A DNA stretch of 64,000 bases, from contig NC_063013.1 in NCBI RefSeq assembly GCF_020509005.1, positions 4,650,001-4,714,000 of the forward strand, read 5' to 3'. The notes below the pieces were generated by a model. It made no database searches. It was given only the letters and a program-made list of their open reading frames with translations, and was not told where the DNA came from. This DNA comes from Fulvia fulva (taxonomy: Eukaryota; Ascomycota; Dothideomycetes; Mycosphaerellales; Mycosphaerellaceae). Every line of letters starts with the position of its first letter. Within the stretch, counting starts at the first letter, position 1. The translations under genes were made by a program, and so were the position numbers. Positions 55,240 to 62,948 of the stretch are shown piece by piece.

Positions 55240-57984
55240 GGAGGTAGATATGCCTAAGGTTATAGATATCGAGACTATAAAGGTCGGAGTAATTAAAGTC
55301 GATATCCCGCTACGTAGTAATCGTCTTATTATATACGGTACCGTTAAAGGCAAGCCTACTAGATGCCTAGTAGATCTAGGCGTATAGTCGATCTTTTGTA
55401 GTACGAAGTTTATAAAGGATTGTGATTAGACAAAGCTACCTACTCTATTTAGAATCGGTATAGTAGACCCGTCTAAGAAGAACGAAGCTACGGAGTACGT
55501 AAAAGCGACTCTAGACCTAAACGGTTACGTCGAAGAATTGAACTACTTTGTTACCGGCATTAAGTATAACTTTATTCTTAGTATACCGTAGGTATAGAAG
55601 CACCTACTAGACTTTAGGAACTAGACGAACACCGTTACGTTCACGTCTTACTATAGAGACTATTACGAAAGAATACTAACGACGGTACGCTATTAACTAG
55701 AAAAACAAGCTCGGTAGTAATAGCGTACCGATCGGACAGACGTAGCGGCAATTATAGGCATTAACATCTCGTCTATAAGTACTACGGAGGCCGTAGAATG
55801 TCTAGAAGATTAGCTTAAAGAGGGCTAATAACTATAAGAAGGCTACCTAATTTAGGAGTAGAATAACGACGCGCTACCTATAACTAAGGAGGAGGCTATA
55901 GAAGAAGTTAGTGTATAGCTCAGCGCTATAGTAGCGTCCGACTTCTAATAATATATAAAAGGCAAAGACGAAGTAGACCTAGATATATCACTTCCGCGTA
56001 AATTTAAGTCGCGACGTAAGGCCTTCGTTCTACGTATAGGAGACGATACCTTACCTCCTTATCGTAAAGGAGACGACCTCGCTATCGACTTTGACCTAGG
56101 GACTAAGCTGCCTTTCGCTCGACTATATCTAATGAGCCTATAGGAGCTCGAAGTCGTAAAGAAGTATATCGACGACTTAAAGACGAAAGGTAAAATTAGA
56201 GAAAGTACGTCACGTATTATATCGCTAGTCATTATTATTAGAAAGCTAGGTAGTGGACTACGCGTCTACGTAGACTATAGAGTAGTTAACGCTATTACGA
56301 TTAAGAACCGATACCCTATCCCGTAGGTCGAGAGACACTATAGCGAATAAGCGGGTATTAATACTTTACCGTACTCGATATCGTTACTACCTTTAATGAA
56401 CTACGTATCCGAGTAGGCGACGAATAGAAGACTATATTCACCTTACGGTATAGGACCTTTAAGTACCTAGTAGTGCCCTTCGGATTATATAACGCTCCTA
56501 GCGTCTTCTAGGCCTACATTAATAAAGCCCTAAGGCCTTACCTTAACGACTTCGTTACCGTATACCTTAATAATACGATCGTCTTTAGCAGTATAAGAGA
56601 GGAGTATATAGAATATATACTTAAGGTACTAGACTACTTCATCGATACTAAACTACTATTAGACATCGCGAAGAGCAAGTTTTTCTAGAAGGAAGTCAAG
56701 TACCTTAGTCTAATTATTACTACCGAAGGTATTAAGATAGACCTAAAGAAGATTAAGACGATCCTCGAGTATAAGACACCTAGAAGCGTAAAGGACGTCC
56801 TTTCCTTCCTCGGCCTCGCGAACTTCTAACGAAGGTTCGTAGAAGGCTTCTCGAACATCGTACTACCTATAACTACTCTTACGAAGGGGGTCGGTAGTAA
56901 GGACAAGTCAAAGCGACCTACGAAATATACTTAGAACTAGATACTAGAGTACTAGTAAGCTTTTAATAGGCTTAAGGCGGAGTTTACGAAGCAACTAGTA
57001 CTATAGTACTTTGACCTAAGTAAGCCTTACGTTGTCGAATACGACGCCTCTAATAGATATACCGGTAGCGTTCTTTTATAGATCGGAGAAGACGGACAGC
57101 TTTACCTAGTTATATACTATTCGTAGAAGATAGATCTAGCCGAGTATAACTATAAGATCTACGACAAGGAGCTTATAGCTATCGTTCGAGCTTTTAAGGA
57201 ATAGCGGCTAGAGCTAATAGGTAGTAAGACTAGGGTGTTGTCTAATTACCGCGGTCTATAATACTTTATAACTACTAAGTAGCTAAATCGCCGATAAGCA
57301 CGATAGAGTAAATTCTTGTCCGGGTTCGATTTCTAGATCGAATACCGACTAGGTAAGCTAGGCGGTAAGCCTAATACCCTAACACGCCGTACTTAGGACA
57401 TAGACGTAATAGACGATATTAAGAACAGATAATAAACGGTCTTAAAGGAACGCAACCTCGCCCCTAAAGTATAGGAGTCTCTTAGAGTATTAGTAATAAT
57501 AACGTATACGAACGCTCGCGACTAATGTTAGCTTGCGCTTACCGTACTTAACGCGAACGAGGCGTCTATTAAGGAAGAGATCTAGAACGCCTACGATTAG
57601 GACGAGCTCGTAGTAGTAATTAAGAAAGGCCTATAAGCTAGCGATAGTCGGCTACCGTAGAAATTAAATACGTATATTAATCTAAGCGAGTACGAACTAG
57701 AGCACGACCTGATTTATATTTAAGGCCGCCTCTACGTACCTAATAGTAGTAATATCCGCGAAGAACTTATAGCCGCTTATTATAATGCCCCTATAGCCGG
57801 CTACCCGGGGCGCGAGAAGATATATAAGCTAATAACTCGTACGTACTATTAGCCTAGTATATAGGCTAACATCGCACGATATATAAAGAACTGTTATATA
57901 TATACTAGAACCAAGGCTTTCTATAATACGTACTAGGGCAACCTTAAGCAAATCCTAATACCTAACGGTATATTCGAGGAAGTG
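55240..57984 (+). pseudogene. Gypsy B pol, first part (protease, RT, RNase H, integrase zinc region)
   Basis: The protease lies near 55340-55410 with an LVDLGVQS block (ancestrally LVDSGA). RT runs from about 56090. The block GLRVYVDYRVVN is near 56260, then the frame appears shifted by a small indel near 56330-56360, and the catalytic box reads YLNN at 56563-56574 (both Asp to Asn, GAC to AAC). RNase H contains VEYDASNRYTGSVL near 57035-57075. An integrase HHCC-like region with GYPGREKIYKLITRTYY is near 57800-57850. The frame stops at the TR-GAG-like insertion at 57985. Confidence 0.85.
57980..57984. repeat. Left 5-bp target duplication of the TR-GAG-like element
   Basis: AAGTG, repeated at 60367-60371. 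Joining the two sides restores the gypsy B integrase frame. Confidence 0.95.
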
Positions 57985-58311
57985 TGTTAGGAACCGCTGT
58001 ACGTTATCCTAACCGGGCTTGGATCTTTGCAGTGATGTCTCTGACTCGTTGAGAAGGTAGTGGTCCCAAACAGTATATGGTGTATACTTAAAATGAGTTG
58101 AGCACGAGGCTCCTATCTACTTGCAAAGGAGCGTCGTCTATATAGTACTATGTCTTGGCGCGGTCACCTCGCTCACGAGTGACCTAAGTGACCCTGAGTC
58201 ACCTCGTTCACGAGTGACCCAAGTGACTCCAATACACTGGCTGCCTAGTGATCTCCCCTCGTTCTTCGCTTGTCTGACAAATGAGCTTCTCCCACCTTTC
58301 AGACCGTAACA
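57985..58311 (-). repeat. 3' LTR of the TR-GAG-like element (element sense)
   Basis: 327 bp, TG..CA ends in both orientations. It contains the 35-bp tandem duplication at 58163-58232 and a TATATAG box near 58139-58146 that reads as TATATAG on the minus strand too. In the plus direction it lies just upstream of the Zn2Cys6-like frame, so it could act as that gene's promoter. The open frame at 58121-58309, identical in the other LTR, is LTR sequence and not a gene. Confidence 0.95.
58163..58232. promoter_or_regulatory. Two 35-bp tandem units with GTCAC/GTGAC half-sites in LTR
   Basis: Units 58163-58197 and 58198-58232 (period 35) each contain GTCACCTCG, a TCACGAGTGAC palindrome and AAGTGAC, giving six GTCAC/GTGAC half-sites in all. 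In element sense they lie upstream of the TATATAG box, the place of a U3 enhancer. Repeated in the other LTR at 60218-60287. A regulatory role is inferred from position and symmetry. Confidence 0.6.
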
Positions 58312-58328
58312 CCATCCCCCTCCCCAGG
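58312..58328 (-). other. Polypurine tract of the TR-GAG-like element
   Basis: The minus strand reads CCTGGGGAGGGGGATGG directly against the LTR. This is the expected primer for plus-strand synthesis and fixes the element's orientation as minus. Confidence 0.85.
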
Positions 58329-58395
58329 ATCGGTGTCCCAACGATCACGTGTCATGATGATATAAGCGAATGTCCCATCATTTTCATTCCTCAGC

Positions 58396-58908
58396 TTGTC
58401 CAAAATGTCTTCCTCCTCGTCACAGAAACGCGAACTTCGTGCCTCCCGCATCGAGCGACAGAATCACCTGGCCGAGTCCCCCTGCGAGAACTGTTGTTCG
58501 AAGTTGCGTCTGTGTTTCGTCATGCCTGGCTCCGACTCGCGGTGTTCCGAGTGTGTCCGTAGAGGTCGCGCCTGTGTCCGTACGTCGTGGGCCGCCATAG
58601 ATCGGACCGAAGCATCCATAAAAAGAGAAATCGAGCTGGCGGAGCAACAACAGGAATCGCTCCTGCAGCAACTGGAGCAGGTCCGGGCGATCCTCACCAG
58701 GAAGCGCCAAGTACTCGAGCAGAACCGTGCCCGTGAAGAAGAAAAACTCCGTTGCTTGGATCGTGAGCTCGCCGCCGAGGGAGACGATACTCGGGTCGTC
58801 CACCTGTCCGCATCCGAGCTGGAGAAGAGCCTCCAAAGCGTCGGTGTAGCGTCCCCTTTCTCCTGGTCTGGTTTTTGTTCTGATCCTCCTCCCGAGGCGC
58901 CTTCGTAA
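58396..58908 (+). CDS. Zn(II)2Cys6-like protein with coiled coil, antisense to its host retrotransposon
   Basis: An intact 170-codon frame. Cys 30, 33, 40, 50, 53 and 60 follow C-x2-C-x6-C-x9-C-x2-C-x6-C, the spacing of the fungal GAL4-type binuclear zinc cluster. An extra Cys at 34 and a basic run (RRGR, 55-58) lie within it. Residues about 72-128 form a Glu/Gln/Arg/Leu-rich heptad-like helix, probably a coiled coil for dimerisation, followed by a Ser/Pro-rich tail. The start may be Met1 or Met4 (58405). The frame begins 84 bp downstream of the LTR and runs opposite to gag, the two converging. In GAL4-type factors this layout binds DNA. Here the usual lysines between the cysteines are few and the domain may instead be a Gag-like or RNA-binding module. 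No RIP stops are present. Function is unknown. Confidence 0.75.
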   Translation: MSKMSSSSSQKRELRASRIERQNHLAESPCENCCSKLRLCFVMPGSDSRCSECVRRGRACVRTSWAAIDRTEASIKREIELAEQQQESLLQQLEQVRAILTRKRQVLEQNRAREEEKLRCLDRELAAEGDDTRVVHLSASELEKSLQSVGVASPFSWSGFCSDPPPEAPS

Positions 58909-59014
58909 GTCGTGTTCCAGTAGTCGTTTATCCGTGTCGTTGTGTTGACTTCTAGTCCTTAGGTCATCAAATCAAGAAGCCGCTGTTTGATGCCTTGTCG
59001 TCAGGTCGTTTCTG
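58909..59014. other. Short spacer between the two convergent frames
   Basis: 106 bp between the antisense frame and the end of gag. I could not identify a terminator or any protease sequence. Confidence 0.6.
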
Positions 59015-60013
59015 CTAAGCAGATTTCGAGAAGAAGTTCTCGCATTCCTGGTATGTCTTCTCTTCGCGAATTATTGCGTTGAACTCGCGGCTAACCATAT
59101 TCTTCTTCTTGCAGTTTTTTGCAAAGTGGCCTTGCTCGCCACATACGTAGCAGGTGGAACCTTTGCTCTTCAGCCCCCTTCCTGTCCTACGATCCGTTAC
59201 GTCCAATTCCATTGGGTCTCCGTAACTAGGGTCCTGACTTCTGGCCTTGAAGCCCCCTCTTCCGCTCGCGGCGGGTCTCTGGTATCCAGGCTGTACGTGT
59301 CGGTCGTACCTCAAATCCTGGAGCCTTTCGTCGATCTCCTTTGCTGCCTTGATCATCGCCCCTAGCGTCACAACGCTGGCGTTTCGGGATAGTTCGGCTT
59401 TAACGTTGTCCTCCAGCCCGAGGTAGAACTGCGATCGCAATGCTGCGTCGTTCCATTCTAGGTCGGCGGCATATCCTTGGAATTCTGAGGCGTACAGCGC
59501 TACAGAAGTGGTCTGTCGAAGTTGTCGGATATGTCGGTCGGCGTATACCTCCTCATTCGGTATCCCGTATAGATCATCGAGTTTCGTCTCAAACTCGTCG
59601 TAGTCGTGGAAAATTTTTCGAGTTTCCGTCTTCGGTGTCCCCCCCTCACCCTGGTTGTGGAGCCAGTCCTTGAGGTATGGTCGGAATCCTCTAGCTGCTT
59701 TTCCTCGTAGGAAGGATGCGGCGTACAAGACCTTGCTGGCCTCGCCTTGAAACTGGTGTGCGTTGAAGTGAAGGTACAACTGAACCTGCAGTTGAAAAGC
59801 CTCCAGTTTGTCCTTGGTCCCGTCGAACGTCTCCGGCGTAGACACCTTAGGTGCACGGTGGTGGTCCTGTGAGTTCAGCATACTCATAGGAGCGTTGTTG
59901 TTCTTGCTGCTTCCTGTAATCGACATTTCGCTCATTCGTTCCGTAATGCCAGTTGACTGTGGCGTTCCTTGTCTTGACGGACTCCGGGTAGCGTCTCTCC
60001 CAGACATATGCAA
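59015..60013 (-). CDS. Gag protein of the TR-GAG-like element
   Basis: An intact 332-residue retrotransposon Gag. The N-terminal 60 residues are Ser/Thr/Pro-rich and likely disordered. A Retrotrans_gag-type capsid region covers about 65-235, with landmarks TFDGTKDKLEAF (62-73), ASFLRGKAARGF (99-110) and SQFYLGLEDNVKAEL (194-208). One intact zinc knuckle CYVCGEQGHFAKNC lies at 288-301 (C-x2-C-x4-H-x4-C), followed by a short basic and acidic tail. The start lies only 26 bp inside the 5' LTR boundary, so the leader is very short. Gag would package the element RNA into particles. Without pol, reverse transcription must come from another element, most plausibly a gypsy relative. The frames on the other strand within it are shadows. 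Confidence 0.93.
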   Translation of the reverse strand: MHMSGRDATRSPSRQGTPQSTGITERMSEMSITGSSKNNNAPMSMLNSQDHHRAPKVSTPETFDGTKDKLEAFQLQVQLYLHFNAHQFQGEASKVLYAASFLRGKAARGFRPYLKDWLHNQGEGGTPKTETRKIFHDYDEFETKLDDLYGIPNEEVYADRHIRQLRQTTSVALYASEFQGYAADLEWNDAALRSQFYLGLEDNVKAELSRNASVVTLGAMIKAAKEIDERLQDLRYDRHVQPGYQRPAASGRGGFKARSQDPSYGDPMELDVTDRRTGRGLKSKGSTCYVCGEQGHFAKNCKKKNMVSREFNAIIREEKTYQECENFFSKSA

Positions 60014-60039
60014 AGGGCCCTGGTGGTGGTGCTCAAAGT
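60014..60039 (-). other. Leader / expected primer-binding site of the TR-GAG-like element
   Basis: In element sense the LTR is followed by ACTTTGAGCACCACCACC. This does not begin with the TGG that pairs with a tRNA CCA end, so the priming tRNA, or another priming mode, is not evident. Confidence 0.5.
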
Positions 60040-60366
60040 TGTTAGGAACCGCTGTACGTTATCCCAACCGGGCTTGGATCTTTGCAGTGATGTCTCTGAC
60101 TCGTTGAGAAGGTAGTGGTCCCAAACAGTATATGGTGTATACTTAAAATGAGTTGAGCACGAGGCTCCTATCTACTTGCAAAGGAGCGTCGTCTATATAG
60201 TACTATGTCTTGGCGCGGTCACCTCGCTCACGAGTGACCTAAGTGACCCTGAGTCACCTCGTTCACGAGTGACCCAAGTGACTCCAATACACTGGCTGCC
60301 TAGTGATCTCCCCTCGTTCTTCGCTTGTCTGACAAATGAGCTTCTCCCACCTTTCAGACCGTAACA
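60040..60366 (-). repeat. 5' LTR of the TR-GAG-like element (element sense)
   Basis: 327 bp, matching 57985-58311 except C for T at 60065 as read by eye. In element sense it drives gag, with the tandem GTCAC-rich units at 60218-60287 followed by a TATATAG box near 60194-60201. Confidence 0.95.
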
Positions 60367-60371
60367 AAGTG

Positions 60372-60968
60372 GCCCTAGACTATATTATAGCACTTCTAGA
60401 CAGCTATAGCCCGGAGGGCGTTAAGTATAACAACATCCTTACCTTAATATATCGTCTTATAAAGCGTAAGTACCTTATACTAGTCGTCGACATAGAGCCC
60501 GAGATAGCTATAGATATAATTATCCGCTACGTTATTAAGGATCAAGGCCTATTCCGCTCTATCTACTTAGACCGCGGCTCGTAGTAGGTGAGTCGCTTCT
60601 AGAAGACGCTTTACGAACGCCTAGGCATTAAGTATAAGATGTCGACGGTATAGTACCCTTAGACCGATAGTTAGTCTAAACGTACGAACTAAATTATAGA
60701 GTAGTACCTACGTATATATATTAATTACGCCTAAGACAACTAGTACGACTAGCTACTAATATTGGAGTTTGCTTTAAATAATATAAAAAGTACTACCGGC
60801 GTGTTATCGTTCTTCGTAACCTTAGGAAGAAACCTAAGAATAGAAGTTCTTAGTAGACCTACCCGTATAGACGTACTACTAGCTACGTAGAAAATTAGCT
60901 AGTAAGATATAGACGCTTTCGTAACTTATATAAGCTATATATACACACATTGTATTAACTAGCTTAAG
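60372..60968 (+). pseudogene. Gypsy B integrase core, second part
   Basis: Continues the integrase from VALDYI. The open stretch at 60336-60584 reads the core with LIYRLIKRKYLI and YLDRGS (SDRGS before mutation) near 60565-60580. STVQYPQTDSQSKRTNQ lies near 60640-60690 (the HPQTDGQSER block of gypsy integrases), and later sequence includes EFALNNIKSTTGV near 60762-60800. The region ends at the LINE A6 insertion. Stops are TAG at Gln or Trp codons. Confidence 0.88.
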
Positions 60969-60983
60969 TATATATAAGTATAG
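60969..60983. repeat. Left 15-bp target duplication of LINE A6
   Basis: TATATATAAGTATAG, repeated at 63015-63029 after the ATCT tail. Confidence 0.94.
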
Positions 60984-62948
60984 ATCTTCAACGCCTGCCT
61001 ACAGACCGGATACCACCCGATAGCTTTTAAACAATCGACGACAGTGGTCCTACGCAAGCCGCAGAAGGAAGACTATACGCAGGTGAAGTCGTACCGCCCA
61101 ATTGCGCTCCTTAACACTCTTAGGAAGGCGCTTGAGAAGCTGGTTGCAACGAGACTCTCCGAGGCGGCAGAGGAACACTCCCTACTCCCGGACACCTAGA
61201 TAGGTGCGCGCCTATAGCGATCGACGCTATCCGCGATGGAACTTATCACCTCTCAGGTAAAGGCCATCTGGTATAAGAATAGGGACAAGGTGGCTTCCTT
61301 ACTTAGCCTAGACATATCGGGAGCCTTCGACTACGTGTCACACCCGCGGCTTCTCTACATCCTAAGGTCGAAAGGACTCCCTAAGTGGCTTGTCAACTTC
61401 GTACGGTCCTACCTCCAAAACCGCAGTACGTCGATCCTAGTCGGCCAGTACAGAAGCCCATTTCAAGCAGTCTATACTAGAATCCCGCAAGGCTCAACGC
61501 TAGCACCTATTCTGTTCCTCTTCTTTATAGCGACGCTGCTCCTAGCCCTAGAATCCCAGAACACCGCTGCGAGCGGCTTCGTAGACGACACAAACATCCT
61601 AGCGTGGTCTTCCTCGACTGAGGAGAACTATAGGCTACTAGAAGAGAAGCACAAGATCTGCGAGGACTGGGCTAGGAGGCACGGGGCTCGGTTTGCCCTA
61701 GAAAAGTACAATCTGATACACTTTACGCGCCGGCTACGGTTCCACAATATGCAAGCTTCTATCTAGATATAGGGGCACACGACTAACCCGGCAAATCAGC
61801 TCAGGATCCTCGGACTATAGGTGGACCCGGCGCTACGGTGGAGGAAGTACGTATAGGCAATATTACGGAAAGCTGAACAGAATATAGCATTATGCCAGAG
61901 GCTCACTACGTCTATATAGGGGGCGGACTTCCGGCAGTCACGACTTCTATATACGGCTATTGTACGGCCAGTCCTTACCTATAGCAGCCAAGTGTGGTCC
62001 TTAGGCGAGAGGGCCTGCCTATCGAAGGGACTCGTCGCGCCGCTAGCGAAGATCAAAAACCAATGCCTAAGGAAGGTCACCGGGGCATATAAGTCGACAC
62101 TAACGAGGATGCTTAAGCACGAGACCGCTATACCGCCGATCGACCTATACATCCAGGGACTACGGACCTCCTACTTAGGCAAGTCGGCACAGTACCTAGT
62201 ATAGAAGGTCATCGCTAGTGCAGTCGCAAGGGCCCGCGAATCAGTACTAGCGTATAAGGGCATTCGACCCGGAAACGAGCCGAACTACCGGGCAAGGGAC
62301 GAACAGCTAGTAACACAATAGGAAGGTGAGAAATCGTTTGTAGAGCAACTATGGAAAGAGAGGTGGAACAACTAGGTTGTAGGGCATAGTGGACGCCCTT
62401 AGCCAGCGGGACAACCTAAGGAATGGTCAGCTACAAAATCCGCGGTCAAGCACCCCCCGAAGCTCATCTACTACCGCCTTACGAGGGCATAGAGTAGCAT
62501 AGCAACCCAACTGCGAAGCGAACACATCGGCCTCCAGGGGTACCTATCATAGAGGAAGGTCCTAGGATACACGAATACTAGCTACCCCTACGGCTATCGC
62601 TCCTAGAACGTACGGTACGCACTCCTCGTCTGTCCGAGGTGGTCGCTAGGAAGGGGGGAGTAGATGGCAAAGGCGAGGAACCGGACGATTAGGGCACTTC
62701 TTAACAACGCTGAAGACCTACGGCGCATTACGAACTAGATACTAGAGAAGGGCTGGCTAGAACAGTACCGCCTAGTAGGAGTAGTGCAGGAAGAGAGGAC
62801 ACGACGCAGCGCGACGAGACCGGCTAGGAGCGGGGGCTAACGGGGTAGTGACATGGACTACGTACGTTCAGAGGGAAAGCTAATCTAGACAAGGAGTAGT
62901 CGGGGGCGGGAAGGGTTTTCACCTATTCGGGTTTCCCTTTGTACATAA
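60984..62948 (+). pseudogene. LINE-A6 ORF2 C-terminal two-thirds (RT core intact)
   Basis: The open stretch 61236-61766 (176 residues) contains RT motif A (SLDISGAFDYV, about 61303-61335), the motif B region (IPQGSTLAPILF, about 61484-61520) and catalytic FVDD at 61578-61589, all intact. Another open stretch at 61992-62204 covers the post-RT thumb/connection. The C-terminal block ending CPRW near 62640 precedes the stop TAA 62946-62948. Stops upstream of 61236 and at 61764 sit at Gln/Trp-type positions. 5' truncation removes the endonuclease and RT entry, so it is not autonomous. Confidence 0.9.

What the first reader, a model, noticed from the sequence alone, without database searches (positions are those of the whole stretch)
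57985..60366. Gag-only LTR retrotransposon carrying an antisense Zn2Cys6-like gene
The sequence shows two near-identical 327-bp LTRs, an AAGTG target duplication, a polypurine tract, an intact gag on the minus strand and an intact plus-strand frame with exact C-x2-C-x6-C-x9-C-x2-C-x6-C spacing plus a heptad-rich helix. TR-GAG elements (LTRs plus gag, no pol) are described in plants. A fungal one with an antisense binuclear-zinc-cluster-like gene is not something I can place. Inference: the second protein may regulate the element's own LTR or assist Gag, and the element is mobilised in trans. Of everything in the window this is the best candidate for an undescribed system.
Basis: partly seen in the sequence, partly recalled or inferred. 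Interest (0 to 1): 0.88.

Follow-up and report, generated by a model that had tools for sequence, protein, structure and literature searches.

The report
Swappable antisense regulator in fungal retrotransposons
A short fungal jumping element whose only retroviral-type gene is the shell-protein gene also carries a gene on the opposite strand that likely encodes a DNA-binding switch for the element's own promoter, and relatives with nearly identical backbones carry very different versions of that gene together with different promoter sequences.

Summary
In detail: 57985-60366 is an LTR element (327-bp LTRs, 1 mismatch; TSD AAGTG) with an intact minus-strand gag, no pol, and an intact 167-codon plus-strand gene with exact Zn2Cys6-type spacing. 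It is one of 19 full-length copies found in its genome; 17 of 19 keep both genes open. The antisense gene is not peculiar to it. Seven families in this genome carry a homologue at the same place: three gag-only and four complete gag-pol (Ty3/gypsy; chromodomain in both pols scanned). A profile search found 233 homologous database proteins; the named ones listed are from Dothideomycetes. Structure models match Zn2Cys6 DNA-binding domains, but weakly; Pfam Zn_clus is not reached. An antisense gene at this place was reported for Botrytis Boty elements (brtn, 2011). What looks new: backbones 90-95% identical carry antisense genes from different branches of the family tree, together with different upstream U3s, which hold short repeat arrays in 5 of 7 families. 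I infer a self-encoded LTR transcription factor exchanged together with its target sites, and gag-only elements mobilised in trans. DNA binding, antisense transcription and mobilisation are untested.

The parts
57980..57984 (.). target site duplication, left (AAGTG)
   Evidence: sequence
57985..58311 (-). 3' LTR (gag sense), 327 bp
   Evidence: 1 mismatch to the other LTR
58162..58219 (.). U3 repeat array in the 3' LTR (dyads such as GGTCAC-N11-GTGACC), upstream of the antisense gene; other copies have one or two more units of 26 bp
58312..58325 (-). polypurine tract before the 3' LTR (ends GGGGATGG, shared by all 7 families)
58328..58346 (.). dyad with GGGAC in its loop, 28 nt from the LTR; the other 6 families have a dyad round GGGAC at 28-29 nt
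   Evidence: alone not significant here (226 of 1000 shuffles have as good a stem)
58405..58908 (+). antisense gene, 167 aa: zinc-cluster-like module, long helix, acidic tail
58483..58575 (+). six-cysteine module (residues 27-57)
58588..58788 (+). predicted long helix (residues 62-128), coiled-coil-like
59015..60007 (-). gag, 330 aa, capsid domain and CCHC knuckle
60024..60039 (-). primer binding site; TTGAGCAC in it is complementary to the predicted 5' end of the element's own RNA (self-priming)
60040..60366 (-). 5' LTR (gag sense)
60040..60160 (-). predicted R-U5, 99-100% identical to the two other gag-only families
60193..60200 (-). TATA-like CTATATAG, 33-40 nt upstream of the predicted RNA start
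   Evidence: position; role inferred
60217..60274 (.). the same U3 array in the 5' LTR, upstream of gag
60367..60371 (.). target site duplication, right (AAGTG)

Best explanation
57985-60366 is a gag-only LTR retrotransposon with near-identical LTRs, related to complete Ty3/gypsy elements of the same genome, whose antisense gene likely encodes a zinc-cluster, coiled-coil transcription factor that would bind the repeat array in the element's own U3 and switch on both gag and itself, and whose movement likely comes in trans from the pol-bearing relatives. Shown: the element, its 18 sister copies, the antisense gene at the same place in seven families, and different antisense genes with different upstream U3s in elements that are otherwise 90-95% identical. 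Predicted: the fold, and a self-primed reverse transcription. Inferred: (1) the U3 array of the 3' LTR lies 186 bp upstream of the antisense start codon and the same array in the 5' LTR lies upstream of gag, so one dimeric protein can serve both promoters; (2) gene and target sites travel together because they are neighbours across the polypurine tract, so template switching between co-packaged RNAs exchanges both at once and keeps each factor with its own sites; (3) retention of the gene in three pol-less families argues for a positive (activator) role, since a parasite would profit from losing a repressor; (4) RT and integrase are supplied by the gag-pol families, which share the LTR tips, polypurine tract and self-priming layout.
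For: Copies: 19 full-length, antisense frame open in 17 of 19, gag open in 17 of 19. Other families, fetched copies: antisense frame full length in 12 of 12 B (sixth Cys changed in 2), 7 of 8 E, 7 of 7 F, 12 of 12 G, 4 of 4 H; by search, open in 6 of 6 C and 23 of 23 B matches. Complete relatives C and H: RT, RNase H, integrase, Tf2-type SH3 and chromodomain. Protein: all six Cys invariant in the 49 chosen database proteins of A4; five invariant, the sixth at 90% or more in the 55 rows of A2; profile comparison with 12 Zn2Cys6 domains of the same genome scores 23.3 against at most 11.3 in 30 column shuffles; Foldseek rows are Zn2Cys6 proteins in 5 of 5 and 3 of 3 (6gys_B named so from recall); VIA-align, which only re-aligns Foldseek's own candidates, in 8 of 8 and 10 of 11 rows; long helix; K+R only 1 in the last 55 residues in 6 of 7 families (5 in A). 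Exchange: C and F are 94% identical over 5.6 kb, gag dS 0.026, yet the antisense genes are near synonymous saturation (pS 0.73); B-E gag dS 0.12 against pS 0.79. In a tree of 128 antisense proteins C lies with A (100/99) while F and G lie with H and most database rows on the other side. U3 8-mer repetition above all 500 shuffles in 5 of 7 families, R-U5 in 0 of 7. A's antisense protein goes with C (BLAST E 3.4e-19 against 9.6e-6 or weaker for the other families; tree) and shares U3 words with C, while its R-U5 and gag go with B and E. Self-priming: TTGAGCAC/GTGCTCAA in A, B, E and TTGAACGCC/GGCGTTCAA in C, F, G, H, a matched change on both sides. LTR tips TGTTACGG...TAACA and GGGGATGG before the 3' LTR shared by 7 of 7.
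Confidence: 0.5

Rival explanations
1. The antisense protein is a copy-number brake: a nuclear repressor that binds the LTR or counters an activator and limits transcription, as HTLV-1 HBZ opposes Tax (recalled).
For: Same side of the element and same orientation as HBZ and as the antisense genes of plant Grande and Retand elements (PMC7264820, PMC11963269, passages); a cysteine module plus coiled coil fits either sign.
Against: Kept open in three pol-less families (17 of 19 in A), which would gain by losing a brake; the acidic tail looks more like an activation region.
Confidence: 0.22
2. The protein acts in the particle: a Gag helper or nucleic-acid chaperone, or a nuclear import or targeting factor for the integration complex.
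For: Zinc-binding modules also serve nucleocapsids (recalled); a plant antisense protein is nuclear and an import role has been suggested (PMC7264820).
Against: Gag already has a CCHC knuckle; this rival predicts no link between antisense gene type and U3 type, although their adjacency could give the link.
Confidence: 0.13
3. The antisense message matters as RNA (silencing or attenuation by convergent transcription) and the protein is secondary.
For: The two genes converge; PMC7264820 names dsRNA as a possible role.
Against: The cysteines are kept in divergent homologues, third codon positions differ most in 21 of 21 family pairs, while blastn finds almost no DNA similarity of the gene between sister elements.
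Confidence: 0.08
4. The antisense gene diverges fast in place (arms race) rather than being exchanged.
For: A, F and G are on long branches.
Against: Synonymous sites are near saturation while gag dS is 0.026-0.32; C, F and G, near-identical in gag-pol, sit in different parts of the tree; B, C, E and H each have closer relatives among database proteins (63-83%, not counting identical entries) than among the other families here.
Confidence: 0.07

Closest known systems
Boty-like elements with antisense gene brtn (Botrytis, Sclerotinia; Zhao et al. 2011)
   Same: Gypsy element with chromodomain and an extra antisense gene between pol and the 3' LTR (PMC7264820, PMC4227169, passages).
   Different: Those are gag-pol elements; the window element has no pol. 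Whether BRTN is homologous to this protein or has the cysteine module could not be tested: the paper is not held.
TR-GAG elements of plants
   Same: LTRs, gag, no pol, presumed mobilisation in trans (papers seen only as a listing with abstract starts; definition recalled).
   Different: Fungal, carries a second, antisense gene, three families in one genome.
Retand, Grande and RIRE2 elements of plants
   Same: Antisense gene between pol and 3' LTR; in Retand kept in nearly all clusters and predicted to bind DNA, in Grande nuclear (PMC11963269, PMC7264820, passages).
   Different: Different protein (TRP28 domain in Retand), Retand is not a chromovirus; no exchange of gene plus U3 in the passages read.
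HTLV-1 HBZ
   Same: Antisense gene read from the 3' LTR side (named in PMC7264820 and PMC11963269); nuclear regulator with a coiled-coil dimer (recalled in part).
   Different: bZIP (recalled), not zinc cluster; exogenous retrovirus.
Tf1/sushi-type self-primed elements
   Same: Primer binding site complementary to the 5' end of the element's own RNA (PMC4600332, passages); Tf2-type SH3 and chromodomain in the gag-pol relatives C and H.
   Different: 8-9 nt complementarity here, 11 nt in Tf1 (recalled); no antisense gene in Tf1 (recalled).
Gal4/Leu3/Pho7-type Zn2Cys6 transcription factors
   Same: Six-cysteine spacing, following helix, predicted fold.
   Different: 167-235 aa, no Pfam Zn_clus match above cut-off, longer first loop in families B and E.

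Membership tests
TR-GAG (gag-only LTR element) | two LTRs with target site duplication | tested here: met
   16 of 17 copies checked have identical 5-bp duplications
TR-GAG (gag-only LTR element) | gag present, pol absent | tested here: met
   the frames of 50 aa or more hold gag and the antisense gene, no pol-sized frame
TR-GAG (gag-only LTR element) | primer binding site and polypurine tract | tested here: met
TR-GAG (gag-only LTR element) | mobilised in trans | not testable with these tools
   inferred from recent copies without pol and shared LTR tips
Self-primed Tf1/sushi-type chromovirus (the gag-pol relatives) | RT, RNase H, integrase and chromodomain | tested here: met
   2 of 2 pol proteins scanned, C and H; F and G not scanned
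Self-primed Tf1/sushi-type chromovirus (the gag-pol relatives) | primer site complementary to own 5' RNA end | tested here: inconclusive
   8-9 nt complementarity to an LTR stretch in 7 of 7 families with matched changes; the RNA start itself is not known
brtn of Boty elements | antisense gene between pol and 3' LTR | tested here: met
   L048-L051; in the window element it lies between gag and the 3' LTR
brtn of Boty elements | protein homologous to BRTN | not tested
   no BRTN sequence at hand; paper not held
Zn2Cys6 binuclear cluster | cysteine spacing C-x2-C-x6-C-x5..12-C-x2-C-x6..8-C (recalled pattern) | tested here: met
   window protein and 4 of the 6 other families; B and E have x14 in the first loop
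Zn2Cys6 binuclear cluster | Pfam Zn_clus above its cut-off | tested here: not met
Zn2Cys6 binuclear cluster | fold | tested here: inconclusive
Zn2Cys6 binuclear cluster | binds two zinc ions and DNA | not testable with these tools
   needs protein

The most novel reading that the evidence does not exclude
A lineage of fungal retrotransposons carries an interchangeable identity cassette: a self-encoded zinc-cluster transcription factor together with its own U3 target array, exchanged as a unit by template switching, so that elements with almost the same backbone run on private, mutually orthogonal promoters; gag-only parasites keep their own cassette and are packaged and copied by the complete elements.
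Probability: 0.35. Interest if true: 0.82.

Novelty: new variant of a known kind. Interest (0 to 1): 0.64.

Why it matters
The function of antisense genes at the 3' end of LTR retrotransposons is an open question (PMC7264820, PMC11963269, passages). Here the protein looks like a compact DNA-binding factor, its candidate target sites lie beside it, and sister elements offer seven natural gene-plus-promoter pairs, so the question becomes a set of simple binding tests. If the pairs are specific, it would be a case of a mobile element changing its regulatory identity by exchanging a factor together with its sites. It also gives a fungal gag-only lineage that lives beside complete relatives.

Tried and rejected
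Decay or chance frame: rejected, 17 of 19 copies open and homologues elsewhere. Decayed relatives exist too: L026 is truncated, L027 has neither gene open, and one search lists further gag relics full of stops. Antisense frame as the mirror of a coding frame: rejected, it does not overlap gag in the window, and in the gag-pol families it overlaps pol not at all (C) or only tail to tail (F, G, H). Antisense gene as a feature of all fungal gypsy elements: one gypsy family with a different gag (L052, 1 copy read) has no frame of 100 aa or more with the module; its pol frame runs into the 3' LTR. Viral contig scan with P0003: 10 pattern matches, none confirmed. Rfam on 57500-60900: no match. RNA folding of the 5' region (173 nt): not above shuffles; single-sequence folds of the dyad region: z from +0.04 to -1.53 in 7, none clear. 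A TATA box upstream of the antisense start: 2 of 7 families only. Heptad pattern of the helix, shuffles of 2000 that reach it: F 4, E 6, A 55, B 89, C 96, H 157, G 391. Within-family polymorphism as a test of selection: uninformative or against constraint. One of 11 VIA rows for the second model is not a Zn2Cys6 protein. Species of the window: not determined.
Full report
What is there. The window is part of a 67.2-Mb, 14-contig fungal assembly. At 57985-60366 lies an LTR element written on the minus strand: LTRs of 327 bp with one mismatch, target duplication AAGTG, TG...CA ends, gag at 59015-60007 with a Retrotrans_gag domain and a CCHC knuckle, no pol, and a 167-codon plus-strand gene at 58405-58908. 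The two genes converge and do not overlap; the antisense gene sits between gag and the 3' LTR. The flanks are RIP-like (TpA/ApT 2.05 and 1.90 in 1.5 kb on the two sides), the element is not (0.96).

Copies. The element has 19 full-length copies in the genome (a lower bound, 40 of 77 candidates were scored). The antisense frame is open in 17 of 19 and gag in 17 of 19; the two exceptions are a tandem pair sharing an LTR (L010) with stops in both genes. In the 17 others, 16 have identical 5-bp target duplications, 11 LTR pairs of equal length differ by 0-5 bases, and 6 pairs differ in length by 26 or 52 bp, whole units of a 26-bp U3 repeat. So the family has moved recently without a pol of its own.

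A lineage, not an oddity. The gag search (121 of 584 candidates scored) found two further gag-only families (here B and E; gag 77% identical to A) and a set of longer elements. I read one element of each of four types in full: L048 (C), L049 (F), L050 (G), L051 (H). All four have LTRs, gag of 665-751 aa, pol and an intact antisense gene between pol and the 3' LTR; two pol proteins scanned (C, H) carry RT, RNase H, integrase, a Tf2-type SH3 and a chromodomain. Twenty more copies, read only at the 3' end, all have the antisense gene open (6 F, 11 G, 3 H), so that 7 of 7 F, 12 of 15 G and 4 of 5 H copies listed were looked at; C is open in 6 of 6 by search. Among the fetched copies of B and E the frame is full length in 12 of 12 and 7 of 8; two B copies have the sixth cysteine changed to arginine. 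One gypsy family with another gag (L052) has no such gene.

Constraint. Between families the third codon position differs most in 21 of 21 pairs for the antisense gene; synonymous sites are near saturation, so the ratios that can be computed (0.17-0.66) are rough, and the pairs are not independent. Among young copies changes are few and not biased against amino-acid change.

The exchanged cassette. Elements C and F are 94% identical over 5.6 kb from the core promoter through gag and pol to the end of the chromodomain, C-G 91%, F-G 90%; B and E are 95% identical over 1.26 kb. In each pair the similarity stops before, or within 40 nt of, the 3' end of the antisense gene and resumes only at the core promoter, apart from a stretch round the polypurine tract and LTR tip (49, 43, 120 and 70 nt; the F-G one, 74% identical, reaches into the start of the antisense gene). 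Gag dS is 0.026 (C-F), 0.12 (B-E), 0.31-0.32 (C-G, F-G), while antisense pS is 0.65-0.79 in these pairs. In a tree of the 7 antisense proteins and 121 database proteins, C lies with A and two database rows (100/99), B and E in a second group (100/96), F, G and H in a third with 104 database rows (98/92); the seven families are scattered (7 changes). The bootstrap had not quite settled, and A, F and G are long branches. B, C, E and H have closer relatives among database proteins (63-83%, identical entries left out) than among the other families here. So the antisense gene plus upstream U3 were exchanged, rather than having diverged in place. The window element A itself looks recombinant: R-U5 99-100% and gag 77% identical to B and E, but its antisense protein goes with that of the complete element C by BLAST, MAFFT identity (38% against 32% for B) and tree; plain global identity says B 39%, C 36%.

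The U3. Upstream of the core promoter five U3s hold short repeats: dyads of GGTCAC...GTGACC in A, TCACTCGCTCACC in C, ACTGATCA in B and H, AGGCACTC in F; 8-mer repetition exceeds all 500 shuffles in these five, not in E and G, and in no R-U5. B and H share 18 8-mers (shuffle maximum 8), A and C share 7 (shuffle maximum 7). A-C agrees with protein kinship, B-H does not. The array of the 3' LTR lies 186 bp upstream of the antisense start codon; the same array in the 5' LTR lies upstream of the TATA-like box that would serve gag. In 19 of the 20 extra 3' ends the LTR start was found, and there U3 type and antisense type agree within family, as near-identical copies must.

Reverse transcription and trans supply. 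The primer site is complementary to a stretch of the LTR, in A 33-40 nt downstream of the TATA-like box: TTGAGCAC/GTGCTCAA in A, B, E and TTGAACGCC/GGCGTTCAA in C, F, G, H. The matched change supports self-priming of the Tf1 kind (PMC4600332, passages). LTR tips and the end of the polypurine tract are shared by all seven families. A search with the short Gag found 28 proteins; 21 are 252-338 aa and 49-80% identical, 10 of these 21 on contigs of at most 2.0-3.1 kb, one named Hortaea (the search is limited to similar lengths, so this does not show that those elements lack pol).

Prior work. PMC7264820 and PMC8365987 (passages) cite Zhao et al. 2011 for an antisense gene, brtn, in Boty elements of Botrytis and Sclerotinia; that paper is not held and I could not compare sequences. 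Antisense genes at this place are known in plant Retand, Grande and RIRE2 elements (PMC11963269 and PMC7264820, passages). The survey of fungal LTR elements PMC3248453 has no occurrence of 'antisense' or 'zinc' in its main text. I found no paper describing a zinc-cluster antisense protein, a fungal gag-only element with one, or a gene-plus-U3 exchange in the listings of searches; the library holds only open-licence papers, and I looked into eight of the listed papers.

Verdict. Real, intact and part of a wider lineage. As an antisense-gene retrotransposon it is a known kind; as a gag-only member with a zinc-cluster-like factor, and as evidence that factor and U3 are exchanged together, it is a new variant.

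Noticed in passing
window 58328-58346 and the same place in L028, L041, L048, L049, L050, L051: A dyad round GGGAC, 28-29 nt from the 3' LTR in 7 of 7 families, with perfect stems of 5-6 bases and five different stem sequences; a possible RNA hairpin or protein site next to the polypurine tract. Alone it is weak (shuffles of 1000 with as good a stem: 9-64 in six families, 226 in the window element).
   Followed up: partly
L048 5283-5286, L049 3082-3085, L051 5775-5778: gag and pol overlap by four bases (stop-start) in three complete elements; suggests coupled termination and reinitiation rather than a frameshift.
   Followed up: no
L010: Tandem pair of A copies sharing one LTR, both with stops in gag and antisense gene, as RIP of a close duplicate would give.
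   Followed up: no
A copies L011-L014, L018, L025: The two LTRs of one copy differ by whole 26-bp units (327, 353, 379 bp), so unit number changes between or during rounds of copying.
   Followed up: no
G000:C1:11152769-11160927: Four B copies in a row at 2,161-bp spacing, i.e. probably sharing LTRs head to tail (positions).
   Followed up: no
window 56485-57979 and 60372-61871: The element sits in RIP-like sequence; it looks like a mutated gypsy relic, which was not tested.
   Followed up: no
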